NCBI GenBank assembly: GCA_902805975.1
Contig: CADCUT010000236.1
Location: 1-57,752 of the forward strand
Direction: 5' to 3'
Source of the DNA: an uncultured Rubrobacteraceae bacterium
GTDB taxonomy: Bacteria; Actinomycetota; Rubrobacteria; Rubrobacterales; Rubrobacteraceae
DNA: 57,752 nt
Below the pieces are notes generated by a model, which saw only the letters and a program-made list of their open reading frames with translations, ran no database searches and had not been told where the DNA came from. Shown piece by piece: positions 6,955-52,041 of this stretch. Numbering within the stretch: the first letter of the stretch is position 1; each line of letters opens with the position of its first letter. Position numbers and translations under genes: made by a program.

Positions 6955-7105
6955 GGGCATCAGGTTACAGGTTCTGCGCGGGACGAGACGTGACCAAGCT
7001 CGCCCATGTCTAGCCGCACAGGCGGGAGCAGGACGAGGGGTTCGAGCCGAACACCTGGCTCGTACGCCCCAATATCTGAAGCCTGATACCTGAAACCTGA
7101 AGCCT
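6955..7105. repeat. Heptad inverted-arm intergenic element A
   Basis: The left arm is three 7-bp units in register (GGGCATC, AGGTTAC, AGGTTCT; 6955-6975). The right arm is four reverse-complement units (GAAGCCT, GATACCT, GAAACCT, GAAGCCT; 7078-7105). About 100 bp of unrelated sequence separates them. The arms can pair imperfectly. The rapZ stop codon (7104-7106) is formed by the last unit. The same organisation recurs at 18272, 23294, 38024 and 51953, and a one-sided version occurs at 8104. Confidence 0.75.
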
Positions 7106-8075
7106 AAAGATCCATGTCCCGGTGACGGACGAAGAGGTCTACGCCGGTGATCTCCCCCCCGAGCCGCCGGGCGAGCTCCTCGACGATGGCGACGGAGCGG
7201 TGGCGGCCGCCGGTGCAGCCGATGCCTAAAGTGAAGTAGGTCTTGCCCTCGGCGTCGTAGCGCGGGATCAGGAAGGAGAGCAGGTCGCACGCCTTCTCAA
7301 GGAACCTCTGGCAGTCCTCGGAGCCCAGGACCGCGTCCCTGACCGGCGCATCGTGGCCGGTGAGCGGACGGAGGTCCGGGTCGTAGTGGGGGTTCGGGAG
7401 AAAGCGGACGTCGAGCAGGGTGTCGACGTCGAGGGGGGTACCGTGCTTGAAGCCGAAGGAGATCAGGGACAAGGTCAGCCTACTCGAGAACGACTCGGCG
7501 AGCTTCTTGAAGCGCAGCCTCGCGTCGAGCGCGGAGTAGCCGGAGGTGTCGACGATCAGGTCGGCCATCTCCCTCAAGGTCGAGAGGTCCTGCCGCTCGC
7601 TCCTGATAGCCTCGAGCACGTCCCCGTTGCGCGCGGCGGGGTGGGGCCTGCGGCTCTCCTTGTAGCGCCGCACGAGGCTGGGGTCGTCTGATTCGATGAA
7701 CAGGATCCTGTGGTCCCACCCCTTCTCCCTCTCGACGGCCTCCAGGCTCCGCTCCAGCTCCTCGCCGAAGTACCGCCGTCCCCGCGTGTCCATCACCGCG
7801 ACGACGCCGTCGGACCCGCCCTCGCCCTCGCCCGTTGCCTCCATCACAGCCGGCACCATGCGCGGCGGCAGGTTGTCAACGCAGTAATAGCCCGCGTCCT
7901 CGAAGGCCTGCAGGGCGTTCGACTTGCCCGCCCCCGAGAGCCCGGTGATGATGACGATCTGGCGCCTGCCGGCGGCCCCCTCGGCCGTCGGCGCCTCCCC
8001 GCTCAAACCCGCCCGACCAAAGGGGAAAACAACATCTCGAAGATGCACACTAGCACCGCGGACCCGACCCTGCAA
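7104..8075 (-). CDS. rapZ: RapZ (YvcJ-type) nucleotide-binding protein
   Basis: This is an RNase adapter / P-loop protein of the RapZ family, which in E. coli controls glmS through small RNAs; its actinobacterial role is unclear. The Walker A is ITGLSGAGKSNALQAFEDAG near residue 43, followed by YYCVDNLPPRMVPAV. The C-terminal domain has SFGFKHGTPLDVDTLLDVRF near 205-225 and the family-defining GIGCTGGRHRSVAIVEELA near 290. The ORF opens with TTG at 8075 (323 residues). Its first 35 residues precede the usual P-loop start, so an internal TTG or GTG is possible; no strong Shine-Dalgarno decides it. Co-orientation with yvcK and whiA fits the conserved cluster. Confidence 0.93.
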   Translation of the reverse strand: MQGRVRGASVHLRDVVFPFGRAGLSGEAPTAEGAAGRRQIVIITGLSGAGKSNALQAFEDAGYYCVDNLPPRMVPAVMEATGEGEGGSDGVVAVMDTRGRRYFGEELERSLEAVEREKGWDHRILFIESDDPSLVRRYKESRRPHPAARNGDVLEAIRSERQDLSTLREMADLIVDTSGYSALDARLRFKKLAESFSSRLTLSLISFGFKHGTPLDVDTLLDVRFLPNPHYDPDLRPLTGHDAPVRDAVLGSEDCQRFLEKACDLLSFLIPRYDAEGKTYFTLGIGCTGGRHRSVAIVEELARRLGGEITGVDLFVRHRDMDL

Positions 8076-8103
8076 CGGAAGTCCGTATATTTAACGAGGA
8101 GAT

Positions 8104-8165
8104 TACAGGCGTCGGGTATCAGCCGTCAGGTATCAGCCGTCAGGTATCAGCCGTCAGGTTATGGG
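8104..8165. repeat. One-sided heptad array B (AGGYNNN units)
   Basis: About eight consecutive 7-bp units occur here: AGGCGTC, GGGTATC, AGCCGTC, AGGTATC, AGCCGTC, AGGTATC, AGCCGTC, AGGTTAT. Three copies of the 14-mer GTATCAGCCGTCAG at 8116-8129, 8130-8143 and 8144-8157 are exact, suggesting recent local duplication. It lies upstream of rapZ. No inverted arm is seen to its right. Confidence 0.75.
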
Positions 8166-8516
8166 TGCGGCGTGACTTCTAGCCGTTCTCGCCCACACGA
8201 GCAGCAGACACCCCCGGGCCGCGCGCCCATCGCGACGTCGGATGTAGGGTGGATCGACGGGACGCCACAAGCGCCGCGAAGGCATTGAGGAGAACGGAAG
8301 AGGCCTGGCTCGCCGACCTCCGCCATCGCCATGCGGCCACCCGCATTCCTATGCACCGCCACGACATGCGGTGGTCAACCCAAAACGCCGCGAGGCTGGA
8401 TCGCACACGTCTCGGCCTTCCGAATACCGCGTATCCCGGATCCTGCATACCGGCTTCGGGGAATCGGCCTCACCCGAAGGTGGGTGAATAGCAGAGTTCA
8501 TCAGTTACGCTGCGGT
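8166..8516. other. Intergenic tract without a supported gene
   Basis: These 350 bp separate the heptad array from the MocR stop. Two overlapping minus-strand frames stay open (67 and 89 codons), but neither has a ribosome-binding site, a recognisable domain or the strong G/C third-position bias of the neighbours. The tract is richer in A/T and CpA than the flanking genes. It contains a small dyad (CACCGC cacgacat GCGGTG, about 8347-8366). I see no RNA gene. It could be a decayed or transferred fragment. Confidence 0.4.
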
Positions 8517-9923
8517 CTACTTGCGGGCGCCCGGCACCAGCGCGAGGATCCCCACGCCCCGGGCGAGCTCTTCGGGACCGGCGCCCACGTAGCTGAGGCG
8601 GAGGAAGGGGCCGGTCGGCTCGGCCGGGAACCAGTGCCTCCCCGGGCTCACCACCGCCCCCGCCCTCCCCGCCTCGGCCGCCACGAGGGCATCGTCGGTC
8701 CCCTCGGGCAGCCCCACCCACAGGTGCAGGCCGCCCCCGGGCACGGCCGGGATGCTCACCCCCGGCAGCCGCTCGCGGACGGCGGACACGAGCGCGTCGC
8801 GTCGGACCCGAAGCTCCTTGCGCAAGCGCCGGCGGTGCTTCTCCCACCCCGGCGAGGATAGGACGTCCAACGCCGCCTCCTGCAACGGGCCCGCGACGAA
8901 GAGGTCGTTTACCAGGCGGGCGGCCTTTAGCCGCGCGCCCGCCGGCCCCCTGGCGCACAGGGCCGCGACCCTCATGCCCGGCGCGAGGGTCTTCGTCAGG
9001 GACCTAACGTGGACGACGTGCCCGTCCGGGTCACCGCTCGCCAGCGTCGGGGGCGGCTCGCCCTCCAGCGCGAAGTCGCGTGCCCAATCGTCCTCGATCA
9101 CGAACGCCCCCGCGCCCCTGGCCGCCCCCAACACGACCTCGCGGCGGTCCGGTGCAAGCACCGCCCCGTGCGGGTTGGCGTACAGGGGCTGGCAGTAGAA
9201 CAGCCGCGAGCCCGTGGAGGCGAACGCCTCCTCCAACAGCTCCGGGCGCACCCCGCCCGCGTCCGTGGGAACCGGCACCGGCACCAGCCCCGCCGCCCGC
9301 GCGGCCGCGAGCGCGCCCACGTAGGTAGGCGACTCGAACAGGACCGGGGAGCCCGGCGCGGCCAGCGCCCGGAACGCCGCCGAGAGCGCCGCCTGCCCGC
9401 CCGGGGCCACGACGGCGTCGTGCGCCCCGAAGCCGCCCCCAGCCTCCCTGGCGAACCACGCCCTGAGCTGCTCCGAGCCCTCGATCGGCGCCCTGCCCCA
9501 CGCGCCCGGGCGCCGCGCCGCCCGCCCCATGGCCGCCGAGAGCGTGCCCAACGGCTGGAGGTCTTCGGAGAGGTAACCGCTCGTGAGCGGCACCGCCCCT
9601 GCCCTCGGCACCGCCAAGAGCTCGCCTAGCCCATCGGCCGAGACCGTCCTCTCCCCCAACGCCACGCTCTGCCACCCGTAGTCCGGCGGGGACGCGCCCG
9701 GGGCGGCAACGTCGCGCGCCGCGACGAAGCTGCCCCGCCCAGGCCGCGCCTCCACGAGGCCCTCGGCAACGAGCCGCTGCACCGCCCGCTGCACCGTCAC
9801 GGGTCCCGCCCGGTGGCGCGCCATGAGCTCCCGCACCGAGGGCAACCTCTCCCCGGGCGAGCCAGCCTCCGCCGCCGCCCTGAGGTCTTCCGCCACGCGC
9901 GTTATCGTGTTATCGTTGTTCAT
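8517..9923 (-). CDS. MocR/PdxR-family transcriptional regulator with aminotransferase domain
   Basis: This is a chimeric regulator: an N-terminal GntR winged helix (residues 1-70, with ERLPSVRELMARHRAGPVTVQR and LVEARPGRGSFVAARD) fused to a fold-type-I PLP aminotransferase domain. The PLP lysine is visible in HVRSLTKTLAPGMRVA near residue 320. The motif VIEDDWARDF (D-x-x-x-E/D region, about 275) and YANPHGAVLAPDRR (N-P-x-G, about 250) also fit. The start is the ATG at 9923, which gives a complete helix 1 (MNNDNTITRVAEDLRAAAEAG). MocR proteins usually regulate a divergent neighbour, here the EamA exporter, whose ATG overlaps this one. The effector is probably a PLP-reactive amine or amino acid (family knowledge); the target is inferred from divergence. 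Confidence 0.9.
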   Translation of the reverse strand: MNNDNTITRVAEDLRAAAEAGSPGERLPSVRELMARHRAGPVTVQRAVQRLVAEGLVEARPGRGSFVAARDVAAPGASPPDYGWQSVALGERTVSADGLGELLAVPRAGAVPLTSGYLSEDLQPLGTLSAAMGRAARRPGAWGRAPIEGSEQLRAWFAREAGGGFGAHDAVVAPGGQAALSAAFRALAAPGSPVLFESPTYVGALAAARAAGLVPVPVPTDAGGVRPELLEEAFASTGSRLFYCQPLYANPHGAVLAPDRREVVLGAARGAGAFVIEDDWARDFALEGEPPPTLASGDPDGHVVHVRSLTKTLAPGMRVAALCARGPAGARLKAARLVNDLFVAGPLQEAALDVLSSPGWEKHRRRLRKELRVRRDALVSAVRERLPGVSIPAVPGGGLHLWVGLPEGTDDALVAAEAGRAGAVVSPGRHWFPAEPTGPFLRLSYVGAGPEELARGVGILALVPGARK

Positions 9924-9951
9924 GAATACTAAGAGTAACGTTATCGAAGCG
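9899..9951. promoter_or_regulatory. Overlapping divergent leaderless promoters and GATAAC repeats
   Basis: The mocR (minus) and eamA (plus) start codons share the tetramer CATG at 9921-9924. There is no Shine-Dalgarno on either side. On the minus strand TACTCT lies 8 nt before the ATG; on the plus strand TATCGT lies 5 nt before the ATG. Both fit a TANNNT -10 box for leaderless mRNAs. Three copies of CGATAAC occur: two in direct repeat on the minus strand (CGATAACACGATAAC, 9902-9917) and one on the other side of the starts (9945-9951). These are candidate MocR operator sites. Confidence 0.5.
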
Positions 9952-10896
9952 GCGTCGAAAACGCAAGCCCCGCGGACGAGGGGCCTCCTGTTCGGGTTCT
10001 TGGGGGTACTGGCCTTCAGCTTCACGGTCCCCCTGACCCGCGTGGCGGTGGCGGAACTGGACCCTGCGTTCGTTGGGCTCGGGCGGGCGTTGGTGGCGGC
10101 GGCGCTGGCCGCGGCCCTGCTCCTCGTCACGCGGCGGGGGCTCCCGGAGCGGCGGCACTGGGGTCGGCTGGTGGTGGTGGGCTCGGGGGTGATCGTGGGT
10201 TTCCCGCTGTTCACGTCGCTGGCCTTGAGGGAGCTCCCGTCGGCGGAGGGGGCGGTGATCGTGGGCCTGCTTCCGGCGGCGACGGCGGTGATGGCCGTGT
10301 TGCGGGCCGGCGAGCGGCCCTCGCGGGCGTTCTGGGGGGCGTGCGCGTTCGGGCTCTTCGCGGTCCTCCTGTTCGCGGCCTCGCAGGGGGCGGGGCTGGT
10401 GCCGGATCGGGGACACCTGCTGGTGCTGCTCGCCGTGGTGTTGTGCTCCCTGGGGTACGCTGAGGGTGGGGCCCTGGCCCAGGAGATGGGCGGCTGGCGC
10501 GTGATCTCCTGGTCGCTCGTCATCTTCGCCCCGTTCCTCGCCCCCTTCGTGGCCTGGTCGGTCCTCGGGACCGGCGGGGTGGGCCTGGCCGGGGCCGGAG
10601 CAGCCGCGTGGGCGGGGTTCGCCTACGTGTCGGTGGTGAGCATGTTCCTGGGGTTTTTCGCCTGGTACAGGGGGCTCGCAGAGGGAGGCGTGGCGCGCAT
10701 CGGGCAGGTCCAGCTCTCCCAGCCCGTCCTCACCCTCCTGTGGTCAGCCCTGCTGCTCGGGGAGCGCATCGGACCCCTGACTATCCTTTGCGCCCTGCTC
10801 GTCTTGGGCAGCGTCGCCGTCGGCCAGAGAACCAGGGTCGCAGGCGATGCCGGGGGCGGAAAGGCTGTCCCCGCGAAAACACCTCGGGAGGGATAG
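9922..10896 (+). CDS. EamA/DMT-family transporter
   Basis: This is a 324-residue integral membrane protein of the drug/metabolite transporter superfamily with about ten predicted helices in two EamA repeats. The first repeat starts with RGLLFGFLGVLAFSFTVPLTR. The second contains SVVSMFLGFFAWYRGLAEGG and the family-typical QLSQPVLTLLWSALLLGERIG near residue 270. Likely exports a small metabolite such as an amino acid; the substrate is not predictable. ATG at 9922 is used; a longer frame opening at 9823 would overlap mocR heavily. The first codon overlaps the divergent mocR start codon, implying shared control. Confidence 0.88.
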   Translation: MNTKSNVIEAASKTQAPRTRGLLFGFLGVLAFSFTVPLTRVAVAELDPAFVGLGRALVAAALAAALLLVTRRGLPERRHWGRLVVVGSGVIVGFPLFTSLALRELPSAEGAVIVGLLPAATAVMAVLRAGERPSRAFWGACAFGLFAVLLFAASQGAGLVPDRGHLLVLLAVVLCSLGYAEGGALAQEMGGWRVISWSLVIFAPFLAPFVAWSVLGTGGVGLAGAGAAAWAGFAYVSVVSMFLGFFAWYRGLAEGGVARIGQVQLSQPVLTLLWSALLLGERIGPLTILCALLVLGSVAVGQRTRVAGDAGGGKAVPAKTPREG

Positions 10897-11028
10897 CGCG
10901 TGGCCGAACCTGGCTCCAGGGTCCCTTCTGTCGGCAAGGCGCGGAAGGCTGTCTCGTGATGGTTTGCACTATGACGGGTACGTGACACCCCGACCGCGAA
11001 CTCAAGACGGTCAGGTAAAACCCGAAGC

Positions 11029-12867
11029 CTACCTGTGAACCCTCGCGTGGACCTCGCGGGCGACGCGGCCGGGGAGGCCGGGGACGGCTTCCAGTTCCCG
11101 GAGCGAGGCGTTTAGAAAGGCGTCCGGGGTGCCGAAGTGGTCGAGGATCTGCTTTCGGCGCGCGGGGCCTATGCCCGGCAGGTCATCTAGGACGGACTGG
11201 GTCATTGCCTTGCCGCGCACCTTGCGGTGGTAGGTGTTGGCGAAGCGGTGGGCCTCGTCGCGGACCCGCTGGAGCAGGTGCAGCTCAGGGGAGTTGCGTC
11301 TCAGCAGTACGGGCTGGGGGCGGCCCGGCTCGAAGACCTCCTCGTCCCTCTTGGCGAGGGAGCGCAGGGGTATGTCCGGCAGGTCCTCGCCGACGTTCAT
11401 CTCGTCAAAGACGGGGACAACGGCCGAGAGCTGGCCCTTGCCGCCGTCGAGCACTATCAGGTCAGGCGCGGGCAGAAACTTCTCGTCTTCTTCTTTGAGC
11501 CGTTCGAGACGGCGTCTTATGACCTCGGACATGCTGGCGAAGTCGTCGGCGCCCTCGACGGTCTTTATCTTGAACCGGCGGTACTGGTCCTTGGCTGGCT
11601 TGCCGCCCTGGAAGACGACCATCGAGGCGACGGAGTTGGTGCCCATGGTGTTTGAGATGTCGTAGCACTCGATGCGCATCGGGAGCTTCGGGAGCGCCAG
11701 CTCCTCGCGCAGCGCATCCAGCGTCGAGGCGACCTGGTTGCGGCGGGCCTCGTCGAGCATCTTCTCGTGGGAGAGGCCCAGCTCGGCGTTTCTGACGGCG
11801 TTCTCGAGCACGCGCCGCTTGTCCCCGCGCCGGGGGCGGTGCACGTTCACCCTGGTGCCGCGCACCCCCGAGAGATGTTCCCGCAAGGGGGCGAGCGTCT
11901 CCTCATCCGCCTCGGACTGGACCAGGACCTCGCGGGGGACGGCGGCGTTGTCGTAGTACTGGGGTACGAACTTCAGGGCGACGCTCTCCGCGGGCTCCTC
12001 GCCGTAGTTGTCGAGGAGGAACGAGTCGCGGTTGACGACCTGGCCGTCGCGGACGGCGAAGACCTGCACGCAGGCCGAGCCGTTCTCGGTAAAGGCGCCG
12101 ACGGCATCGAAAGAGTCCTCTGAAGTGATGGTGGCCTGCTGGCGGTCGCGGACGTGGTCGAGGGCGGCGAGTTCGTCGCGCAGCTTGGCGGCCCGCTCGA
12201 AGTCCATCTCGCGGGCGGCGGTCTTCATCGCCTCCCTTCGGGTTCGGATCAGGCCGTCCACCCGACCTTCGAGAAAGGAGACGACGTCGGCGATGATCCC
12301 GTCGTATTCCTCCTTGGTGACGGCCCCGATGCACGGCGCCGCAGACCGGCCGATGTGGTAGTTGAGGCAAGGCACCCCGCTTTTGCGCCCCGGCTCTGGC
12401 CCCCGGCACTTGCGGAATGGGAACGTTTTGTTCAGGACGTCGAGCGTCGAATGGACCGATCCCGCGCTCGGGAACGGCCCGAAGTAGCGGTGGCGCGAAT
12501 CGTGGAGGGAGCGCGTGGCGAAGACCCGCGGGTACTCGTCCCCCATCGTCACCACGATGTAGGGGTAGCTCTTGTCGTCCTTGAGGGAGGCGTTGAAGCG
12601 CGGGCGGTGGCGCTTTATAAGGTTCGCCTCGAGGACGAGCGCCTCAGTCTCGGTGCGCGTGGCGATGAAATCTATCCGGGAGACCCGCTCGCGCAGCTCC
12701 GCTATCTTCGGGCGGCCGTCCCCGCCCTTGGTGAAGTAGTTGGCGACCCGGCTGCGGATGTTCTTCGCCTTGCCGACGTAGACGACCCTGTCCCCGTCGT
12801 CTTTAAAGATGTAGACGCCGGGAGAGGTCGGGAGGTGGGATCTGTCGGGGTAACCGTCGCGGGACAT
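11029..12867 (-). CDS. uvrC: Excinuclease ABC subunit C
   Basis: UvrC makes both incisions around a lesion in nucleotide excision repair. The 612-residue protein has all expected parts. The GIY-YIG nuclease is at residues 12-90 ([25 protein letters not shown]). A UVR motif near 205-235 ([15 protein letters not shown]) binds UvrB. The RNase H-like endonuclease starts at [19 protein letters not shown] near 400. Tandem helix-hairpin-helices at the C-terminus include [18 protein letters not shown] and [15 protein letters not shown]. The ATG at 12867 lies 7 nt after a perfect TATAAT, so the mRNA is probably leaderless. It is upstream of rapZ-yvcK-whiA in the usual actinobacterial order. Confidence 0.97.
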
Positions 12868-12874
12868 CGAGCGT

Positions 12875-17822: not shown

Positions 17823-18272
17823 ATGGCTGGCACAAACAACGGGAAGTTCTCCGAGTTATTCGCGGTTATAGAAGATTACGCCCGGCGGGAGTACCACTAT
17901 CAGGACAAGGCGCTCCAGATCATAGCCGGCTCGTACGTGTTCATGTTCGAGAGCGAGGACATGCCAGACGCCCGTCCCGTGCTTGACGGCATCCTCGAGC
18001 AGTACGACTACGCCTTCACCACCATCGAGCGCGGCAACCTCGACCCCCTCATCGTGGACGCTATCGTGAGGGTCGCCCTCTACCGCGAGGAGTACATGGA
18101 ATGGGGCATCAACCGCCTCGGCAAGGTTCTCGAGTCCCTCTTCCGCCGCTCCCGCACCGACGACACCTACGCCGACTACGTCGAGGACTCGGCGCTCGTC
18201 ATCCGCGGCCTCGAAAGGATGATCACCGGCTCGGTCCTGGAAGACTTCGTCGACGCGGCGAACGGGCAGTAA
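17823..18272 (+). CDS. Helical cytoplasmic protein, function unknown
   Basis: This is a 149-residue acidic, mainly helical protein with no signal peptide or membrane segment. No family is recognised; it contains several aromatic-rich helices (EDYARREYHYQDKALQIIAGSYVF) and ends AANGQ. Two ATGs are in frame (17817 and 17823). The second is preferred because GAGAGG then lies 6 nt upstream, whereas it abuts the first. It is monocistronic and convergent with uvrA. The TAA stop merges with the first heptad unit of the intergenic element that follows. Confidence 0.7.
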   Translation: MAGTNNGKFSELFAVIEDYARREYHYQDKALQIIAGSYVFMFESEDMPDARPVLDGILEQYDYAFTTIERGNLDPLIVDAIVRVALYREEYMEWGINRLGKVLESLFRRSRTDDTYADYVEDSALVIRGLERMITGSVLEDFVDAANGQ

Positions 18273-18448
18273 GGCTTCAGGTTCTAGGTCTCAGGCTTCA
18301 GGTCGTGGTGGCGGTTGGGGCGTTCGCCTGACCATGCTCCCTTTAGCAGCGGGGCAAGCCGTAGCCCTGAACCTGTAGTTTTCGTCGGTGCCCCTCTCGT
18401 CCGGCCCAACGCGACCGGCTTCCACCGAAAAACCTGATGCCTGATGCC

Positions 18449-18449
<1 letters not shown>
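18272..18449. repeat. Heptad inverted-arm intergenic element C
   Basis: The left arm has units AGGCTTC, AGGTTCT, AGGTCTC, AGGCTTC and AGGTCGT in perfect 7-bp register (18272-18306). The right arm has AAAACCT, GATGCCT, GATGCCT (18429-18449). The element fills exactly the space between two convergent stop codons: TAA of the 149-residue gene on the left and TGA of uvrA on the right. A further inverted fragment (CCTGAACCTG) lies inside near 18367. Confidence 0.78.
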
Positions 18450-21301
<2,852 letters not shown>

Positions 21302-21555: not shown

Positions 21556-23295
21556 ATGATACTGGCCCGTTACACCGCGTTGCGAACGGAGTTGGCCGTG
21601 ATCCTCAAAGACTTTTCCCGGGTGCTGCTGGAGGAACTGGGCGCCGACTGCCCGCTCCCCGGCGACCCATCCTGCACGGTCTCTGGCATCGCCGTGGACG
21701 AGTCGCTTAAAGGCTGGCTCGGCAGGGACGAGGCCGCGGTGACGGCGAGGCCGGTCCTCGACGAGGAATTTCTGCGGGAGGTCGCCGCGGGCGGCTCCCC
21801 GGCCGTCGTGTGGCGGTCCGAAGCGAAGGCGCCGCCGGAGGCCCTGGAGCGGGCGTCGGCCCTCGGGCTGGCCCTCTTCGAGCTCGCGCCCGACGTCCCG
21901 CTGCGGCGGTTGGGCGCTCTCTTCGGGGGCGGCGACAGGCTCCTGCTCCTCTCCCACGGCGCCGGCAGAGCGTTGCTCGAGGGCGCGGGGGGCGAGTCCT
22001 CCGTCGCCGAGACCGCCGCCCGCGTCTCCGGGCTCCTCGGCCGCTCCGTGGTCATAGAAGACAGGGTGGGGCGCCTGATCTCCTCGGCCCCGAACCCGGA
22101 GAGCGATGAGGTGAACCCGCTGCGGGACCTTCTGGAGGAACGCAGCCTGCGCGCCTCGCGCTCCTCCGGGGTCGATGAGACCAGGCGCGAGCGCCGGGAC
22201 CGCTACGCGAGGCTGCCTGACGGCTACCTCTCCGTCCCCGTCGAGCGGTGGCGCGTCGAGGACCACGAGCTCTTCTGGACGCCCATCGGCACAGGAGCAC
22301 CCGCCGGCTACCTCTGGGTAGACCTCGAAGGCGAGACGCTAAGACCCGAGGACGTCGTCCTCCTCTACTGGGCCAGGCGCGTCCTCGAGACGGAGCTCGG
22401 CAAGGACCGGGTGCGGCTTGAGACCGAGCTAGGCGTGCGGGGGGACTTCGTGGACGACCTGGTCAAGGGGCACTACGGCTCGGTGAACCTGCTGCTGCAG
22501 CGGGCGGGGTATCTCGGGGCCGACCTCGCCGCGGGCGCGCTCGTCCTGATCGTGGACATCGACGACTTCGCCCGCTACCTCGAACGCCGCCGTCCGAGGG
22601 AACCCGCGATCCAGGAGCTCAAACGCCGCCTGGCCGAGGCGGTGCGCATGCAGACCCGCCAACTCTTCTCGAACTTCCTCCTCGGGCCGCGCTCGGACAA
22701 CGTAATAGTCTTTTTAGGCTCATCGGAGGACACCCCGCCCGAAGACCTTCCCGAGAAGGCGCAGCTTCTGGCCAAGGGCGTTCAGCGCTACGTCAAGGGC
22801 CTGCTGCCCGACCTGACCATCTCCGTCGGCATCGGCCGCCACAAGACGGACCCGGCCCTCCTCCCCGACGCCTACTCCGAGGCGGAGGTGGCCCTTGAGA
22901 TCGGCCACCGCATCCAGGGCCCCTCGGCTGTCTCCACGTTCGAGGGCACCGGCACCTACAAGCTCCTCTTCCGCGTCCTCCAGGAGAACCCGGAAGAGCT
23001 CGAATCCTTCTACAACGAGACCCTCGAGCCCGTCGTCCGCTACGACTCTCGCTACAGCACCGAGCTTGTCCAGACCCTCGTCACCTACCTCGGCAACGAC
23101 GCCTCGACCGTCCGCACCGCCTCAGACCTCTACGCCCACCGCCATACGATCCGCTACCGCCTCGACCGCGTCGGCGAGCTTACAGGCCTCGACGTAGACA
23201 AGAGCGAGGACCGCGAACGCCTCACCCTGGGCATAAAGGCGATGCAACTCCTCGGCCGCGTCCCCGAAAGACCGACCAGCTTCGCGGATCGCTAG
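21556..23295 (+). CDS. PucR/CdaR-family transcriptional regulator
   Basis: This is a 579-residue regulator of the PucR/CdaR type. The N-terminal half resembles a GAF-like sensor region. The middle (about 320-450) is the GGDEF-related CdaR domain (ALVLIVDIDDFARYLERR, LTISVGIGRHKTDPALLPDAYSEAEVAL). The C-terminal HTH_30 has VTYLGNDASTVRTASDLYAHRHTIRYRLDRV near 530-560. The start is taken at ATG 21556, where the conserved protein begins (MILARYTALRTELAV); there is no good Shine-Dalgarno, and the frame stays open upstream only as antisense of uvrA. It is divergent from uvrA and upstream of amtB. PucR proteins often control purine or nitrogen catabolism, so amtB is a plausible target (inference). 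Confidence 0.87.
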   Translation: MILARYTALRTELAVILKDFSRVLLEELGADCPLPGDPSCTVSGIAVDESLKGWLGRDEAAVTARPVLDEEFLREVAAGGSPAVVWRSEAKAPPEALERASALGLALFELAPDVPLRRLGALFGGGDRLLLLSHGAGRALLEGAGGESSVAETAARVSGLLGRSVVIEDRVGRLISSAPNPESDEVNPLRDLLEERSLRASRSSGVDETRRERRDRYARLPDGYLSVPVERWRVEDHELFWTPIGTGAPAGYLWVDLEGETLRPEDVVLLYWARRVLETELGKDRVRLETELGVRGDFVDDLVKGHYGSVNLLLQRAGYLGADLAAGALVLIVDIDDFARYLERRRPREPAIQELKRRLAEAVRMQTRQLFSNFLLGPRSDNVIVFLGSSEDTPPEDLPEKAQLLAKGVQRYVKGLLPDLTISVGIGRHKTDPALLPDAYSEAEVALEIGHRIQGPSAVSTFEGTGTYKLLFRVLQENPEELESFYNETLEPVVRYDSRYSTELVQTLVTYLGNDASTVRTASDLYAHRHTIRYRLDRVGELTGLDVDKSEDRERLTLGIKAMQLLGRVPERPTSFADR

Positions 23296-23406
23296 GTTCG
23301 AGGTTTCAAGGCCCTAGGTTATAGGTTCTGGGCGGGCAGTGGGCGGGGCAGCAGTGAGAACGTAACACCGCCCGTCGCCCTTCCTAATGCCTCAAACCTC
23401 GAACCT
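23294..23406. repeat. Heptad inverted-arm intergenic element D
   Basis: The left arm has AGGTTCG, AGGTTTC, one 8-bp slip (AAGGCCCT), AGGTTAT and AGGTTCT (23294-23329). The right arm has AATGCCT, CAAACCT and CGAACCT (23386-23406). The pucR stop codon TAG (23293-23295) is completed by the first unit. The core carries complementary G-rich and C-rich runs (GGGCGGG against CCGCCC), so the whole can fold as a long hairpin. Confidence 0.75.
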
Positions 23407-38023: not shown

Positions 38024-38131
38024 AGGCATCAGGTTTCGGGGGTGCCTGGACGGGGTCGGGTCCCGATCGCCCCCTATAACTCAGAAGGAGAAACCTCGAA
38101 CTTAGAGCCTGACGCCTCAAACCTGATGCCT
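38024..38131. repeat. Heptad inverted-arm intergenic element E
   Basis: Left arm AGGCATC, AGGTTTC (38024-38037). Right arm GAAACCT, CGAACTT, AGAGCCT, GACGCCT, CAAACCT, GATGCCT in register (38090-38131). The core carries GGGGG and GCCCCC runs that can pair. The right end lies 3 bp before the livF stop codon, so it is in the livF 3' region. Confidence 0.75.
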
Positions 38132-43370: not shown

Positions 43371-43386
43371 AGCCCCCGTTCCACGC

Positions 43387-43472
43387 GCCGGAGTGGCGGA
43401 ATTGGTAGACGCGCCGGACTCAAAATCCGGTTCCCCGAAAGGGGAGTGTCGGTTCGAGCCCGACCTCCGGTA
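43387..43472 (+). tRNA. tRNA-Leu (anticodon CAA)
   Basis: 86-nt tRNA gene. Acceptor GCCGGAG pairs with CTCCGGT (G1-U72 wobble, A73). D-loop GGCGGAATTGGTAGAC. Anticodon stem CCGGA/TCCGG with loop CTCAAAA, giving anticodon CAA (43421-43423), which reads UUG. A long variable arm (GTTCCCCGAAAGGGGAGT) makes it a class II tRNA, as expected for leucine. T-arm GTCGGTTCGAGCCCGAC. CCA is not encoded. Confidence 0.97.
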
Positions 43473-46367: not shown

Positions 46368-46509
46368 GCCGGCTCTCCCTTCCCGGTTGCGTATCGTTGC
46401 GAGGGTTATCGGCCGGGCCGGGGTCTTTGTTTAGAGGTTGGGGAGGGCGAGTAAGATGGGCGCGCGGGGCCGGCGATGGGGCCGGTCCCAATCGGTGAGA
46501 GGAGTCTAG

Positions 46510-47049: not shown

Positions 47050-47116
47050 GAACCGGTCCCGCAGGGCATAGAGCCCGCAGCAAGACAGGCGAATGCAAGA
47101 GACGAAAGGAGGGCCT

Positions 47117-47368
47117 GTGGCGGAGCAACGCACCGAGGGGCAGATCAGAGTGCGTCAGGTGACCAACGTGCAGTTCTCGTGGACCGAGGAGGGACGGGGC
47201 GAGCACGGCGCCTTCACGGTGCAGCTCGTCCTCGATAACGGCGCCGAGGAGTACGTGCTGCAACCGACGGCCGAGGACGCCAAGGTGCAGCTGGAGCTCT
47301 TCAAGATCGCCGAGGCGGTCTACTTCGATCTGGACCGGAAGGTCCTGATCCCGAGCAAGGTAGCCTAG
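47117..47368 (+). CDS. Small paralogous protein 1, function unknown
   Basis: This is an 83-residue cytoplasmic protein. It shares with the next gene the pattern VRQVT-V-W-E...G-F-QL-LDNGAEEY...EDA-V-ELFK...VYFD-RKV, clearly a recent duplicate family. The start is GTG at 47117 because AAAGGAGGG precedes it; the ATG eight codons upstream (47093) has none. Probably a small beta-rich ligand- or protein-binding module; nothing more can be said. Confidence 0.8.
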   Translation: MAEQRTEGQIRVRQVTNVQFSWTEEGRGEHGAFTVQLVLDNGAEEYVLQPTAEDAKVQLELFKIAEAVYFDLDRKVLIPSKVA

Positions 47369-47409
47369 CACCCGGTTAGGGCAACGGAGAACGAGAAGCG
47401 GAGGGAACG

Positions 47410-47667
47410 TTGAGCGAGAACGTCGAGCGGAACATCATGGTGCGTCAGGTAACGGACGTGCACGCCAACTGGAGCGAGCAGGAGCGCGGGGGTCCCGGCA
47501 AGTTCTCCTACCAGCTTATCCTGGACAACGGCGCCGAGGAGTACGCCATCAGGCCCGAGGCCGAAGACGCGGACGTCCTGATCGAGCTCTTCAAGGTCAC
47601 CGACAAGGTCTACTTCGATATGGAACGCAAGGTCGTCATCTTCGGCAGCATCCCCCTGGGCGGCTAG
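47410..47667 (+). CDS. Small paralogous protein 2, function unknown
   Basis: This is an 85-residue protein paralogous to the gene just upstream (shared LDNGAEEY and VYFD-ERKV blocks). TTG start at 47410 with GGAGG 5 nt upstream, 42 bp after its paralogue. It ends 15 bp before a strong terminator, so ppa and the two paralogues may form one transcript. Confidence 0.8.
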   Translation: MSENVERNIMVRQVTDVHANWSEQERGGPGKFSYQLILDNGAEEYAIRPEAEDADVLIELFKVTDKVYFDMERKVVIFGSIPLGG

Positions 47668-47682
47668 GACGATAGCAAAGCA

Positions 47683-47719
47683 AAAGAGGAAGGGCCCCGC
47701 TTTGGGGCCCTTCCTCTTT
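47683..47719. terminator. Rho-independent terminator after the paralogous pair
   Basis: A 16-bp perfect stem (47683-47698, AAAGAGGAAGGGCCCC, with 47704-47719) and a 5-nt loop. The A-rich base on the left and T-rich base on the right allow it to work in both directions. Confidence 0.85.
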
Positions 47720-47733
47720 GCCGGACCGAACGC

Positions 47734-47772
47734 GAGGAGGGCCAGCGCCGTTGGTTGGCGCCGGCCCTCCTC
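47734..47772. terminator. Second GC hairpin, probably for the convergent SRPBCC gene
   Basis: 15-bp stem with one mismatch (GAGGAGGGCC-a-GCGCC with GGCGC-c-GGCCCTCCTC) and a 7-nt loop, 34 bp beyond the SRPBCC stop on the minus strand. No long T-run follows, so its terminator role is less sure. Confidence 0.5.
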
Positions 47773-47805
47773 TTGGGCCGTCTTGCAACGGCAGCTAAGG
47801 GCTAC

Positions 47806-48423
47806 CTAGAACTCGAATATGATGCGGGACTTGCCCTTGCCGCCGGAAGAGGAGCCGCCGCCCCGGCGCAGCAGGAACCAGAGCAGCACCACGCCACCGA
47901 TAACGGCGAGGCCGGTGCCGGAGGTCAGCGTCGCGACGGCGCCGCTGTGCGCGTCGGCCACGGCCGGACGCTGCTGGACTTCCTCGGGTGTCGCCTTGCC
48001 CTCGATGATGTCCCTGAAGTTGCGCAGGTCCTGCTCCATGATGGCCTTCGGGCCTGAGGTCAGCCTGGAGACGGCCTCCCCAGCCTTGCCGCCCGGCGGG
48101 TCCGCGTACTTCATCTGAACCTCGAGCTTGGTGCGGTTCGGGGTGACCTCCTGGAAGCGGACCTGGCCCGAGGTCTGGACGTCGCCGTCCACCGTGTTCC
48201 AACCGATGGCGCTGTTCTGCTCGTCCTGGGTGGTCCTGGCGTCGAACTCTGCCCTGTAGCCAAGGGGCCCCTTGACGACCCAGTGGGTGGTGTCAGGCCC
48301 GGTGGAACGTACCTCTTCGATGTTCTTCATAAAGCTCGGCAGGTTCTCGAGGTTACGCCAGTACTCGTAGACCTTGGCAACCGGGGCTTCTACCTCAATG
48401 CTTCCAGTGATCGGCTCCGCCAT
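47806..48423 (-). CDS. SRPBCC (START-like) domain protein with C-terminal membrane anchor
   Basis: 205 residues. Residues 1-145 form a polyketide-cyclase/SRPBCC-type lipid-binding domain (SIEVEAPVAKVYEYWRNLENLPSFMKNIEEV, WVVKGPLGYRAEFDARTTQD, GWNTVDGDVQTSGQVRFQEV). They are followed by a linker and one C-terminal helix (GLAVIGGVVLLWFLLRRG) and a Gly/Ser/Lys tail. The domain should face the cytoplasm. ATG 48423 preceded by GGAGGT. Probable hydrophobic ligand carrier; ligand unknown. Neighbouring crtY-blh could suggest a terpenoid (inference). Confidence 0.85.
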   Translation of the reverse strand: MAEPITGSIEVEAPVAKVYEYWRNLENLPSFMKNIEEVRSTGPDTTHWVVKGPLGYRAEFDARTTQDEQNSAIGWNTVDGDVQTSGQVRFQEVTPNRTKLEVQMKYADPPGGKAGEAVSRLTSGPKAIMEQDLRNFRDIIEGKATPEEVQQRPAVADAHSGAVATLTSGTGLAVIGGVVLLWFLLRRGGGSSSGGKGKSRIIFEF

Positions 48424-48533
48424 TCTGGGGACCTCCGTTGTTAGTGGAATACTGCAAGACTTCGATAAGCTCTCTGTGTACCCTAACGCTGGAGAGGTAA
48501 ACCTGCGTCCCTGACCGCGCCCCCGCACCTTCC

Positions 48534-49613
48534 CTAAGGCGTCAATGGTCCCGGCCCATCGCCCGGCGACGGACGAGTCTTCTTCCAGACACCCTGGCGA
48601 CCGTCCATGTACGTGACGAGGGAGGCGTGCGGGAGCGTGAGCGCGGAGACGAGCACCAGGTAGATGGCGAGAAGGGAGCCGGGGGCTTCCGTCGCGCCCG
48701 GGACGGCCAGGTAGAGCCCGGCGAGGAGCGCGAGCGCCAGCGCGGTCAGGGGCGCCGCGTCCCTCGCGAACCGGGCCAGCGCGCGCCCCGGACGTCCGGC
48801 GCGCAGGTACCGGGCGCCCGCGGGGTCGAGCAGCACCAGCCGGGCCACGTGCCGGGGGGCGTGCCAGAGCGTGAAGTACAGGCCGACGGCGAGGACCGGA
48901 GGCACGACGGCGAAGAAAGCGAAGAGCAGCAACGTCTCGAGCGCGACGGGCAGCAGGGCCCGGCGCCCTCCGGCGAGGTCGCCGGCCGCGCGGAGCAGGA
49001 AGAGTGCCGTGACCACCGCCAACGCGCCCCAGACCCCGAGCCGGAAGGCTGGCGAGAAGGCGCCTGCGAGGACCGTCGCGTCCGCGCCGAACAGCCCGGC
49101 GGCGGCGGTCGCGACCCCGCGGTAGGCGTCCGGGAAGAAGAGGAGCGGGACCAGCATGGGCAGGCCGCCGCGGAGGACGAGCAGCAGGGCGCGGGACGCG
49201 CGCCCCATCCCGCTCAAGCCATCCGGGCCGAAGAAGAGCAGGGCGTGAAGTTCCCCAGCCCCCCAGTGGAAGACCGTGACGCAGACGAAGAGGACGAAGG
49301 CGGCGATGGGTGCCGTAAACCAGAGGGCGAGGCAGAGGCCGGAGAGCACCAGATAGAGAAGCACGACGGCGAGCACGCTCCGGCCATCGGCGTCCCTGCC
49401 GGCGAGCCGGGAGGGCACCAGGTGGTCCACAGCGCCGTGCGGCAGTCCGAAGAAGACGAGGCTCGCGGCGAACGGCAGGTACTGGACCCACCCAGGCACC
49501 CGGAGCCCCGTGGCGAAGGCGAGCGTCAGGAGCAGCACGACGGTGCGGGAGGGCCACACCACCGCAACCCGCCCGGCCGGATACGGCCCCCTGTCAGAAG
49601 CTTTCGCGCGCAC
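48534..49613 (-). CDS. blh: Brp/Blh-family beta-carotene 15,15'-dioxygenase
   Basis: Brp/Blh enzymes cleave beta-carotene to two retinal molecules in the membrane. 359 residues with about ten helices. Conserved His motifs expected to bind iron: FFGLPHGAVDHLV near residue 55, FHWGAGELHAL near 118, LWHAPRHVARL near 250, and LPHASLVTYMD near 330. GTG start at 49613 overlaps the crtY end by 20 bp, so the pair is translationally coupled. No rhodopsin gene is in the window. Confidence 0.9.
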   Translation of the reverse strand: MRAKASDRGPYPAGRVAVVWPSRTVVLLLTLAFATGLRVPGWVQYLPFAASLVFFGLPHGAVDHLVPSRLAGRDADGRSVLAVVLLYLVLSGLCLALWFTAPIAAFVLFVCVTVFHWGAGELHALLFFGPDGLSGMGRASRALLLVLRGGLPMLVPLLFFPDAYRGVATAAAGLFGADATVLAGAFSPAFRLGVWGALAVVTALFLLRAAGDLAGGRRALLPVALETLLLFAFFAVVPPVLAVGLYFTLWHAPRHVARLVLLDPAGARYLRAGRPGRALARFARDAAPLTALALALLAGLYLAVPGATEAPGSLLAIYLVLVSALTLPHASLVTYMDGRQGVWKKTRPSPGDGPGPLTP

Positions 49614-50949
49614 GGTCGATGGCCTCCCCGGCGGCGAGCCGCAGGAAGGGGAGCTTCGGGAGCGCCCCGATAAGCCTGGCGTCGTCGAGGTACGAGCTAC
49701 CTTCGGTCAGGAAGCGGACGAGCGGGTCTGGCGGGGTGCCCGCGAACATGCGGGCGTAGATCCCGGGGCAGTCCTCCGGACGCTCGCGCAGGAGCCGCAG
49801 GAACACCCGGTCAAGCGGCCCGTAGCGCCACGGGTGGACCCTGCCGGGGTCCCCGCCAGAGCCGGTCAGGCTCGCGGCGAGGGCGCGGCAGTAGCGCTGG
49901 ACGCGCAGGAACGTGTACCCGGTCGAGGGCCGGGTCTCGCCGCCGAGCGTCCCGATCACGTGGGTGCGGGCCCCGATCCTCCTCGGGAAACGGTGGGATG
50001 TCATCGGTATGTCCCCCCACTCCTCGCCGTGTACCTCGTAGTCCCCTCCGGAGAGCCCATAACGCTCATGCAGGTAGTCTGAGAGCCCGGCGCGGTGCGT
50101 TTCGGGGGGGGCGCCGCTCTCTGTCAGGTAGACGTTCTCGACGAGCGCCTCGTGCTCGTCGAAGGGCAGCACGTAGGCGAAACGCAAGCCCTGGCCCTGG
50201 TCTACGGAGAAGTCCATGAGGGTGCAGCTTCCGGGGTCGAAGACCGGGCGGCGGGCGCGCAGGCGCCAGCCGAGGAACTGCTGGGAGATCCAGGTCCCCC
50301 CCCGGCGCGCCTCCTGGAGGACCGCGGAGTCCGGCGGGAGGCCGCGCCCGTCGAACACGCGATCAGCGAGGTATGAGCCGGAGGAAGTGACGACCAGCAC
50401 CCCGTCGTCGAGCTCCTTGCACGAGCGCACGTCCTCCCCGAGGCGGACCGTGACGTTGCCGTGGGTGGAGATCTTGCCGAGCGCGTCCTCGTAGAAGTCA
50501 GCGCCGGTCAGGCAGAGGTAGGGGTAACGGCTGCTCGTGTGGATGACCTCCCGCCCTCCGGCGCGCACGGACCAGGAGTTCCACCGCCGGAGGGCGCGGC
50601 CTGAGAAGGGCGTCTCCTCGACCTCCCAGAAGCACCAGGTCCTATCGTCGGCGAAGGTCTTCTTGCGGTCCAGGATCAGGATCGGCGCGTCTACTCCCCG
50701 CTCCAAGAGGTAGTGGCAGAGGCTCAGCCCCGCGCACCCGGCGCCCAGGATCACGTACCCGTACCTCTCCGGTTCCGGACCGCCGGGTCCCAGACGCTCC
50801 GGCAGCGGGACGGATCTCCCCCGCCGCGCCGGGGCCGTCACGGCCCACCGGGTGTCTCTGCCGCCAACATGCCGACGATCATAGCCCATCCCACACGCCC
50901 GCCCCGTCTGTTTAATCTCAAACAGGCCGAAGGTTTTGTCGATTTGCAC
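49594..50949 (-). CDS. crtY: Lycopene beta-cyclase (CrtY type)
   Basis: FAD-dependent cyclase making beta-carotene from lycopene. Dinucleotide-binding VILGAGCAGLSLCHYLLERG near residue 64, DDRTWCFWEVEETPFSG near 100 (family hallmark), and GTLGGETRPSTGYTFLRVQ near 340. The ORF of 451 residues has about 60 residues before the FAD motif, more than usual; the ATG at 50889 or a later GTG may be the real start. Coupled to blh, so the two steps lycopene to retinal are expressed together. Divergent from the arginase-fold gene. Confidence 0.88.
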   Translation of the reverse strand: MQIDKTFGLFEIKQTGRACGMGYDRRHVGGRDTRWAVTAPARRGRSVPLPERLGPGGPEPERYGYVILGAGCAGLSLCHYLLERGVDAPILILDRKKTFADDRTWCFWEVEETPFSGRALRRWNSWSVRAGGREVIHTSSRYPYLCLTGADFYEDALGKISTHGNVTVRLGEDVRSCKELDDGVLVVTSSGSYLADRVFDGRGLPPDSAVLQEARRGGTWISQQFLGWRLRARRPVFDPGSCTLMDFSVDQGQGLRFAYVLPFDEHEALVENVYLTESGAPPETHRAGLSDYLHERYGLSGGDYEVHGEEWGDIPMTSHRFPRRIGARTHVIGTLGGETRPSTGYTFLRVQRYCRALAASLTGSGGDPGRVHPWRYGPLDRVFLRLLRERPEDCPGIYARMFAGTPPDPLVRFLTEGSSYLDDARLIGALPKLPFLRLAAGEAIDRARESF

Positions 50950-51012
50950 TCGACCCGCAGGGAGAGGTAGGCCCGCGACGCCCGTCGAGGGTCCTTACCG
51001 TAGAATGCGGGC

Positions 51013-51921
51013 GTGGGAGGCTACCAGGACGTTAGCGTTATCGTCGCGCCCTACGACTCCGGGCACCGCGGCGTGCGCATGGGCGCCGGTCCGGAGCATC
51101 TCCTCGGCGGCGGGCTCCGGGGGGCACTCCGGGAGAGGGGCCTAAGCCCGAGCATAGAGACCGTGCATCCCGAGGGCGACCCGCCGGCCGAGGTCGCGAC
51201 CGCCTTCGAGCTGGACGGGCTGGTCTCCGAGCGGGTGCGTGGCGCCCTCGCAGACGGCCGGGTCCCCCTGGTGCTCTCGGGCAACTGCAACGCCTCGGTC
51301 GGGACGATCTCGGGGGCCGGCACCAGTAGCCTGGGCATCGTGTGGTTCGACGCCCACGCGGATTTCAACACCCCGGAGACCACCACGAGCGGCTTCACGG
51401 ACGGGATGGGCCTCGCCGTGGCGGTGGGACACTGCTGGCGGAGGATGGCCGGGGGCGTACCCGGCTTCTTCCCGGTACCCGAGGAGAACGTGGTGCTCGC
51501 TGGCGTCAGGGACGCGCAGCCCGCGGAGAAGGAGAGGCTCGCCGCCTCGGAGGTGACCGTCGTCGAAGCGAACCGCATCGACCGGGAGGGTTTGCGGGCC
51601 CTCGCGGGGGCCCTGGATGATCTGAAGGCCGCGGTGGGCAGGGTCTACGTGCATCTGGACCTCGACGTGCTCGACGCGGAGAAGGTGGGCCGGGCCAACG
51701 AGTTCGCCCCGCGAGGAGGCCTCGGCACCGAGGAGCTTCTGGCGGCGCTCGGGATGGTAAGCGGGCGCTTCGACGTCGCCGCGGCGGGCATCGCCTCCTA
51801 CGATCCCACCTTCGACGCGGACGGGCGGGTCCTGAAGACCGCCCTCGCGTGCGTGGGGGCGCTCGTCTCGCCGTCGAATCCCGCCGTCCAGGGCGACCCG
51901 CGAGAACGTAAACCGCTCTAG
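51013..51921 (+). CDS. Arginase/agmatinase-fold protein with altered first metal site
   Basis: 302 residues of the ureohydrolase family. The central motif VWFDAHADFNTPE (D-A-H-x-D, about 118) and HLDLDVLDAEKVG (D-x-D, about 217) carry most manganese ligands. The first ligand motif, normally GGDHS, reads LSGNCNASVG here, so His is replaced by Cys. Reaction therefore uncertain: guanidino-substrate hydrolysis, or a relaxed or lost activity. GTG start at 51013. The stop codon is centred in a 16-bp perfect palindrome (51912-51927). Confidence 0.85.
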   Translation: MGGYQDVSVIVAPYDSGHRGVRMGAGPEHLLGGGLRGALRERGLSPSIETVHPEGDPPAEVATAFELDGLVSERVRGALADGRVPLVLSGNCNASVGTISGAGTSSLGIVWFDAHADFNTPETTTSGFTDGMGLAVAVGHCWRRMAGGVPGFFPVPEENVVLAGVRDAQPAEKERLAASEVTVVEANRIDREGLRALAGALDDLKAAVGRVYVHLDLDVLDAEKVGRANEFAPRGGLGTEELLAALGMVSGRFDVAAAGIASYDPTFDADGRVLKTALACVGALVSPSNPAVQGDPRERKPL

Positions 51922-51952
51922 AGCGGTATGGGAAAGGGTTGCGTCTCTGGTG

Positions 51953-52041
51953 AGGCTTCAGGTACGAGGTACGAGGTTCTAGGGGTGGGTGGCCGGGAGC
52001 CCGCCCCGCCTACCACCCCTAGAGCCTAGAGCCCACAACTC
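51953..52041. repeat. Heptad inverted-arm intergenic element F
   Basis: Left arm AGGCTTC, AGGTACG, AGGTACG, AGGTTCT, AGGGGTG (51953-51987). Right arm CACCCCT, AGAGCCT, AGAGCCC (52014-52034) then ACAACTC-AGG. The central 11 bp TCTAGGGGTGG and CCACCCCTAGA are exactly complementary, giving a strong hairpin. Lies between two convergent stop codons. Confidence 0.75.

What the first reader, a model, noticed from the sequence alone, without database searches (positions are those of the whole stretch)
6955..52041. A family of intergenic elements built from degenerate 7-bp AGGYNNN units with inverted arms
Six places (6955-7105, 8104-8165, 18272-18449, 23294-23406, 38024-38131, 51953-52041) carry runs of 7-bp units starting AGG (consensus about AGG[CT][AT]TC). 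In five of them a run of the reverse complement follows 45-120 bp later. The register is strict (for example AGGCTTC-AGGTTCT-AGGTCTC-AGGCTTC), while positions 4-7 vary between units. Cores differ, but several are self-complementary (11 bp perfect at 51979-52022). All two-armed copies lie 3' of a gene. Several complete the stop codon itself (pucR TAG, rapZ TAG), and copy C fills exactly the space between two convergent stops. Heptad repeats called STRRs are known in cyanobacteria, but I know of no described family with this word and inverted layout. Possible roles: bidirectional terminator or 3'-UTR stabiliser, a binding array for a protein reading 7-bp steps, or a selfish MITE-like element.
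Basis: seen in the sequence. Interest (0 to 1): 0.85.

Follow-up and report, generated by a model that had tools for sequence, protein, structure and literature searches.

The report
Gene-end seven-base repeat arrays
At the ends of many genes, this Rubrobacter-like bacterium and its relatives carry short ladders of seven-base repeats that often start inside the stop codon; some related species have the ladder at the same gene ends but spell it with a different three-letter word, which makes an old unexplained class of bacterial repeats testable.

Summary
The window lies in a 3.53-Mb Rubrobacteraceae genome with 204 overlapping matches to a four-unit AGGY heptad run; the reversed word gives 0. 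In a 708-kb sample, arms sit in 14 of 38 convergent, 39 of 171 tandem and 3 of 62 divergent spacers of 100-600 bp. Arrays are often in register with the stop codon, whose A(G) is part of the first unit (TAG genes: 21 of 190 in phase, 0-4 in each other phase). AGG is better conserved between species than the other four positions. Related species carry the same layout, often at the same gene ends, with another word: AGCY heptads or AGCNNNNC octads. A distant actinobacterial family has YGGAY heptads just behind stop codons.

The layout, not the word, is in print for Xanthomonas GGGAATC and, mostly unpaired, Nostoc GGGGAYT heptads (PMC4692102), so this is a new variant of a known kind. New here: stop-codon register, octads, word turnover at shared sites, and words without the G-tracts of the published quadruplex proposal.

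Function is unproven. I favour a bidirectional 3'-end element read by its word; slippage or selfish turnover is the main rival. RAYT/REP, copy-and-paste MITE and U-tailed terminator are not supported.

The parts
6941..6975 (+). Element A, left (distal) arm, 5 units
   Evidence: inner two units kept in G004, G003, G001 (by eye)
7071..7105 (-). Element A, right arm, 5 units; its outer AG is the AG of the rapZ stop codon TAG (7104-7106)
   Evidence: RapZ by Pfam
8100..8162 (+). Element B, single arm of mixed AGG and AGC units with a 14-bp repeat of three copies
   Evidence: orthologous spacers in G004, G003, G001
18272..18306 (+). Element C, left arm; first A is the last base of a TAA stop (18270-18272)
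18429..18449 (-). Element C, right arm; first A is the last base of the uvrA TGA stop (18449-18451)
   Evidence: UvrA by Pfam
23294..23329 (+). Element D, left arm in two registers (one extra base at 23308); begins in the TAG stop of the pucR-type gene (23293-23295)
   Evidence: PucR HTH by Pfam
23379..23406 (-). Element D, right arm
38024..38037 (+). Element E, left arm, 2 units
38090..38131 (-). Element E, right arm, 6 units, 3 nt behind the stop of an ABC-transporter ATPase gene; no arm found in the orthologous stretches of G003, G006 and G002
51953..51987 (+). Element F, left arm, between an arginase-family gene and an M24 peptidase gene (convergent)
52014..52034 (-). Element F, right (weaker, score 12) arm

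Best explanation
These are gene-end heptad arrays. The constrained part is a three-base word (AGG in this genome) repeated every 7 nt; the other four positions vary but are rich in pyrimidines and T. Many arrays are laid in register with the stop codon, whose A or AG is the first unit's A or AG. In tandem and convergent spacers a second array often faces it on the other strand. A transcript from either strand would then read AGG ladder - core - CCU ladder and could fold into an imperfect stem. Most likely the element marks or makes gene 3' ends in both directions (termination, pausing or protection of the 3' end) and is recognised by its word, by a protein or by the transcription or RNA-decay machinery. 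When the recognition changes in a lineage, words turn over while many sites stay. Shown: register, word conservation, gene-end bias, inverted layout, shared sites, different words at them, stem potential. Inferred: transcription of the element, a reader, and any effect on 3' ends.
For: Spacer bias: 14 of 38 convergent, 39 of 171 tandem, 3 of 62 divergent spacers of 100-600 bp have an arm. Stop register (2 or more of 3 downstream units in phase): 21 of 190 TAG genes (other phases 0-4) and 7 of 63 TAA genes (other phases 0); for TAG genes 19 of 89 when the stop itself reads AGG, 2 of 101 otherwise; G006 with its word AGC, TAG genes: 14 of 62 when the stop reads AGC, 0 of 93 otherwise. Word conservation, ungapped identity at positions 1-3 against 4-7, summed: G004 about 0.85 against 0.69, G003 about 0.91 against 0.53; core 0.56 and 0.52, gene ends 0.92 and 0.88. 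Sites shared although words differ: G006 has a detected arm at 8 of 11 own-element spacers and 4 of 41 others (p 8e-5). In G006 all 21 AGG arms of 3 or more units that have a facing partner face an AGG arm; 7 more have none. Stem: 36 of 45 two-armed elements fold with z below -2, mean -3.6; on average 61% of the left arm pairs with the right arm.
Against: No expression data exist here. There is no T-run within 12 nt of any of 94 element ends, and U-tailed hairpins are about as common with elements as without. Pairing beyond the word is barely kept: in 27 pairs the arms of one element were more alike than swapped arms (p 0.007) but not more pairable (p 0.23); in 47 pairs the duplex is -28.3 against -26.1 kcal/mol with swapped arms; within-species pairing does not beat cross-species pairing (6 orthologous pairs, two of them identical, p 0.63). 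One-armed arrays exist here, 8 and 8 on the two strands in tandem spacers, and about nine of ten G318 arrays looked at have no facing arm (by eye), so a stem cannot be the whole story. TGA genes show only weak register (4 of 98; other phases 1-3), and G006 TAA and TGA genes show none; in G006 other phases of TAG genes reach 7 against 14. Elements are gained and lost. Many units are gapped in the alignments (11-14 of 66 per position in G004, 21-25 of 54 in G003), and aligners favour repeated words.
Confidence: 0.4

Rival explanations
1. Mutational or selfish turnover without a host function: heptads arise by polymerase slippage or another array-making process, accumulate where they do no harm (behind stop codons, away from promoters), and each lineage carries the word that happened to spread.
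For: A 14-bp repeat of three copies in element B; gains and losses between close species; scarcity between divergent genes fits tolerance as well as function; long perfect arrays exist in G318; units within one arm share a dialect (0.49-0.51 against 0.44 for random units, p 0.004).
Against: Adjacent units are no more alike than non-adjacent ones (0.49 against 0.51), unlike recent slippage. Word positions are better conserved than the rest, which comes near the core. Exact register with the stop and joint word choice in both arms are not explained.
Confidence: 0.3
2. A double-stranded DNA signal: an oligomeric protein binds the word at 7- or 8-bp steps for nucleoid organisation, replication-transcription insulation or DNA uptake, as Neisseriaceae DUS dialects do; gene ends are simply where such sites can be kept.
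For: The word is constrained more than the positions between words; lineage-specific words, in part at shared sites; one-armed arrays show no strand bias in tandem spacers (8 and 8).
Against: Three words coexist in G006. Register with the stop codon has no evident DNA-level reason. No reader gene was sought.
Confidence: 0.2
3. A transposon-like repeat: REP/BIME moved by a Y1 (RAYT) transposase, or a MITE that targets stop codons.
For: Inverted layout, dispersed copies, gene-end positions, presence and absence between species; runs of identical units are shared between elements somewhat more than by chance (two units 97 against 65 pairs, three units 5 against 1.2).
Against: No Y1 transposase match in G000, G001-G004, G006 or G007; in the genus only G005 and G008 have one. 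Shared runs stay very short and cores are unrelated (58 of 6458 14-mers shared). No target-site duplication seen by eye at A, C, D, E or F. Other transposase families were not searched.
Confidence: 0.06
4. G-quadruplex elements, as proposed for the Xanthomonas and Nostoc heptads.
For: Same anatomy as the published heptads (PMC4692102).
Against: The fixed words AGGY, AGCY, AGCNNNNC and YGGAY carry at most two Gs in a row, and arrays with them sit in the same kind of gene-end place.
Confidence: 0.03

Closest known systems
GGGAATC / GGGANTN heptad repeats of Xanthomonas (Rehm et al. 2015, PMC4692102)
   Same: Degenerate 7-nt units, most often four; mainly intergenic; most often 0-50 bp behind a stop on the sense strand or 0-50 bp upstream of an ORF on the antisense strand; under-represented between divergent ORFs; many convergent inverted pairs; 83% at the same genes in two species with length and sequence variation (section 10 and passages).
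   Different: Word is AGG, AGC or GGA without a G-triplet; an 8-nt form exists in relatives; exact register with the stop codon and word replacement at orthologous sites are not mentioned in the parts I saw.
GGGGA(C/T)T heptads of Nostoc (same paper)
   Same: Intergenic heptads with a preference for positions close to ORFs.
   Different: Few inverted pairs; four-G units; [quoted passage not shown]
TAACTGA direct repeats of marine Beggiatoaceae (PMC4679880)
   Same: Mostly intergenic heptads in sets of two to six; some overlap an upstream stop codon (abstract and passages).
   Different: Mostly just upstream of start codons, nearly invariant unit, one indirect repeat only.
GGGACCG four-heptad elements of Geobacter metallireducens (PMC2700814)
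   Same: Four tandem heptads, 49 locations (passages).
   Different: Also inside genes; found as copies alignable by BLAST.
Neisseriaceae DNA uptake sequence dialects (PMC3630211, search listing and start of abstract only; the rest recalled)
   Same: Lineage-specific words, often in inverted pairs at gene ends (recalled).
   Different: One 10-12-nt word, not an array at 7-nt pitch (recalled).

Membership tests
Gene-end heptad repeats of the Xanthomonas kind | Degenerate 7-nt units in tandem | tested here: met
Gene-end heptad repeats of the Xanthomonas kind | Intergenic, near stop codons on the sense strand, scarce between divergent genes | tested here: met
   1 of 115 arms inside a gene; 42 of 115 begin from -3 to +5 of a same-strand stop; spacer counts
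Gene-end heptad repeats of the Xanthomonas kind | Convergent inverted pairs | tested here: met
   47 two-armed elements in 708 kb; of 103 chains 78 have a convergent and 11 a divergent partner
Gene-end heptad repeats of the Xanthomonas kind | G-tract of three or more, able to form G-quadruplexes | tested here: not met
   the unit AGGYNNN fixes two Gs in a row; no biophysical test
Gene-end heptad repeats of the Xanthomonas kind | Majority of repeats are transcribed | not testable with these tools
   no RNA data
REP/BIME with RAYT | Y1_Tnp (RAYT) gene in the genome | tested here: not met
   no match in G000 or G006; 3 of 36 genomes have one; G000 is 82% complete
MITE | Copies similar along their whole length | tested here: not met
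MITE | Target-site duplication | tested here: inconclusive
   none seen by eye at five window elements; no systematic test
Intrinsic (U-tailed) terminator | Stem followed by a T-run | tested here: not met
   TTTT within 12 nt of 0 of 94 element ends
Intrinsic (U-tailed) terminator | Stable stem | tested here: met
   36 of 45 with z below -2
Cyanobacterial STRR | Identical heptads in tandem (recalled) | not tested
   no STRR sequence was compared
Known Rfam RNA family | Match above the gathering score at an element | tested here: not met
   only a tRNA in the window

The most novel reading that the evidence does not exclude
Many bacteria run a gene-end punctuation system: a 3-nt word at a fixed 7- or 8-nt pitch, counted from the stop codon itself, read by an unknown oligomeric factor that coevolves with the word, so that whole genomes switch word (AGG, AGC, GGA, GGGA) while the punctuated sites stay the same. 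The published quadruplex-forming heptads would then be one dialect of it.
Probability: 0.25. Interest if true: 0.88.

Novelty: new variant of a known kind. Interest (0 to 1): 0.62.

Why it matters
Heptameric repeats have been reported as over-represented in many bacteria since 2007 (as cited in PMC4692102 and PMC4679880), and PMC4692102 ends by saying that the function of its repeats remains to be elucidated (passage). Words without G-tracts in the same kind of place also weaken the quadruplex explanation of the published cases.

Tried and rejected
Copy-and-paste mobile element: rejected on copy dissimilarity and lack of a Y1 transposase; other transposases not searched. Intrinsic terminator with U-tract: not supported. 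Slippage unit by unit: adjacent units not more alike, although a 14-bp repeat of three copies shows that local duplication happens. Element supplying a new stop after insertion into a coding end: at site D the TAG is at the same place in relatives with another word and in G003 without an array, and at site A in four relatives with arrays and in G007 without one, not in G002 (read by eye), so there the array sits behind an older stop. Compensatory pairing between arms: not seen, but only 6 pairs. Known RNA family: none. Literature: 9 searches listed no description of AGGYNNN or AGCYNNN arrays or of stop-codon register; the library lacks most subscription journals. My first gene calls missed genes and were retrained before use; gene starts remain approximate, and short genes may be missed.

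In one search two of 47 elements longer than 230 nt were left out of folding. Most of the 708-kb sample comes from contigs picked because one search listed hits there, so densities are not genome-wide rates; phase, spacer-type and identity comparisons are internal. The G006, G318, G003 and G004 samples were also taken largely around hits. The arm threshold of 14 used is permissive (4 control arms in 338 kb), and some AGC calls there are weak. The chains, which allow one skipped unit, have a background: reversed controls give 6 AGG heptad chains against 96 (own) and 6 against 28 (G006), and 6 AGC heptad chains against 128 (G006); AGC heptad chains in the own genome (6) are below their control (15).
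Full report
What was checked. The window is contig 236 of a 3,528,030-base genome in 238 contigs, 82% complete. Its UvrA matches a MAG contig named Rubrobacter sp. MGR_bin397 at 96% in the best segment, so I call the family Rubrobacteraceae.

Reality and density. In 338 kb, AGGY chains of three or more units number 39, against 0 in reversed sequence and 0.8 per dinucleotide shuffle, and only spacing 7 (with its double, 14) stands out. In 708 kb there are 115 arms at score 18 or more, one of them inside a gene, and 47 two-armed elements with cores of 3-224 nt, median 80. The unit is AGG, then Y, then three positions rich in T and pyrimidines. At positions 6-7 the pair CC occurs in 4 of 250 units where about 40 are expected from the single-position counts (my arithmetic).

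Position. Spacers of 100-600 bp carry an arm in 14 of 38 convergent, 39 of 171 tandem and 3 of 62 divergent cases. Many arms begin at a stop codon: of 115, 19 begin at -2 (all TAG) and 7 at -1 (TAA or TGA). Aligning genes with spacers of 60 bp or more at the stop, AGG recurs at +7, +14 and +21 from the A of TAG in 25, 21 and 23 of 187 genes, where other offsets give about 4. Formally, 21 of 190 TAG genes have at least two of three units in that phase, against 0-4 for each other phase; 19 of 89 if the stop itself reads AGG and 2 of 101 if not. TAA gives 7 of 63 with 0 in all other phases, TGA 4 of 98 with 1-3 in the others, so TGA is weak. The outer ends of many unanchored arms lie short of a neighbouring gene's start (by eye).

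Other species, shared sites, other words. All 8 other genomes of the genus have AGGY runs (5-77 matches); so do 10 of 27 other genomes of the family; of 24 genomes from other families of the phylum one has them, as perfect repeats; reversed controls are 0 except in a few genomes (4 in G006, 9 in G057). In the genus, G006 has 153 AGCY heptad matches and 114 AGCNNNNC octad matches; G005 and G008 have 104 and 114 octad matches; the own genome has 2 and 0. At site A, G006 has AGCY arms where the own genome has AGGY arms; at site D, G005, G008 and G002 have AGC octad units starting at the A of the same TAG (register read by eye). Across 52 orthologous spacers, G006 has a detected arm at 8 of 11 own-AGG spacers and at 4 of the other 41 (Fisher p 8e-5); one of the three misses has octads that my detector does not score (read by eye). 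One single-armed site keeps its place right behind the stop in both species with a different word (L284_681_834). In G006 TAG genes the stop register holds for its own words: AGC in 14 genes in phase (other phases 0-7), 14 of 62 when the stop reads AGC against 0 of 93; AGG in 4 of 42 against 0 of 113; its TAA and TGA genes show none. Of 28 AGG chains in G006, 21 have a facing partner, all AGG, and 7 have none. Of 128 AGC heptad chains, 52 have a partner: 49 AGC heptads, 2 AGG, 1 octad; AGCT is its own complement, so that number is soft. Of 10 octad chains 3 have a partner, 2 of them octads.

What is conserved. In elements A-D, ungapped identity of own to G004 is 76 of 86 at AGG, 51 of 84 at the three last positions and 115 of 219 in the core (counts worked back from the fractions). 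In a second set of 13 aligned spacer pairs (7 with G004, 6 with G003; overlapping the first at window sites), positions 1-3 keep 0.80-0.91 (G004) and 0.85-1.00 (G003), positions 4-7 keep 0.64-0.75 and 0.38-0.65, the core 0.56 and 0.52, gene ends 0.92 and 0.88. Gapped units are left out of these figures, and aligners tend to anchor on repeated words, so part of the gap may be bias. In the 52 spacers, arms are in both species in 9 pairs, in own only in 4, in the relative only in 3.

Stem or word. Any two opposite arms pair well because AGG faces CCT: mean duplex energy -28.3 within elements, -26.1 with swapped arms (1% of 200 shuffles reach the real mean), -12.2 with shuffled bases. Whole elements fold with mean z -3.6; 36 of 45 are below -2. 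But 6 orthologous pairs show no better pairing within than across species, 30 spacer tails have one arm only (the 14 convergent ones are 7 arrays seen from both genes), and 0 of 94 element ends have a T-run. So the stem is real as potential, and the word, rather than the pairing of the other positions, is what is kept.

Wider. Over 396 genomes of the phylum, 51 have AGGY runs, many of the listed ones perfect repeats; degenerate ones occur in a few other families (for example G102, G239, G278, G248), and the reversed control word itself is frequent in 4 of 5 sampled genomes of genus g66, family f21. In G318 of that genus, 67 YGGA heptad arrays lie in 301 kb (0 in reversed sequence), 61 outside genes, and 30 of these 61 begin 1-14 nt behind a same-strand stop (my count from its list). 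There too GGA recurs every 7 nt from the stop, at +7 to +35 behind TAA (7, 7, 5, 6, 6 of 65 genes) and at +9 to +37 behind TGA (7, 5, 7, 6, 3 of 46), more weakly behind TAG. Of ten looked at, about nine have no facing arm and several are followed by a TTGACA...TATAAT-like stretch (by eye). Two contigs from the viral collection, host unknown, carry AGGY heptads with inverted arms at gene edges (L163, directly behind ORF stops in two of three; L175, ORFs mechanical).

Known kind. Rehm et al. 2015 describe the same anatomy for Xanthomonas GGGAATC heptads and part of it for Nostoc. I therefore file this as a new variant of that kind, failing its G-tract criterion. The G-tract is what their quadruplex proposal rests on, so arrays with similar placement and other words speak against quadruplexes as the shared function. 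Stop-codon register, octads and word turnover at shared sites were not found in the nine literature searches listed in Tried and rejected.

Mechanism. I commit, at 0.4, to a bidirectional 3'-end element recognised through its word. The main rival, at 0.3, is functionless turnover tolerated at gene ends. What decides is 3'-end mapping and word-swap reporters. The mended counts did not change these odds.

Noticed in passing
window 8106-8159: Element B alternates AGGTATC and AGCCGTC in a 14-bp repeat of three copies; G004 and G003 have a single AGC unit in the same array, so both words can live in one array.
   Followed up: partly
L128, L135, L138, L143 (site D orthologues): AGC octad elements carry nested GC-rich hairpins with GGCTCCGCC- or GGCTTCGCC-like tips between units.
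   Followed up: no
L312-L327 (G318): YGGA arrays often start with a CGGA unit after an A-rich spacer and often end with TGGATAA; long perfect CGGAACT and CGGAACC arrays (17-18 units) also occur.
   Followed up: no
G097, G318, G359, G389 (family f21, genus g66): High counts in the reversed-pattern control column (42-165); in G318 they are another degenerate heptad word. A fifth genome of that genus, G292, has none.
   Followed up: partly
G037 (another actinobacterial family): Degenerate AGCYANN heptads (AGCTACA, AGCCACA, AGCTAGT), 20 matches; this genome also has two Y1 transposase matches.
   Followed up: no
708-kb own sample: TAG is the commonest stop codon (323 of 644), unusual for a 66% GC genome as far as I recall.
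   Followed up: no
own units: CC before AGG (CCAGG) is nearly absent within arrays, while TC, CT, CG and AC are common.
   Followed up: no
L163, L175: Contigs filed as viral carry gene-edge AGGY inverted arrays; host unknown.
   Followed up: partly
window 43387-43472: A tRNA gene, the only Rfam match in the window.
   Followed up: no
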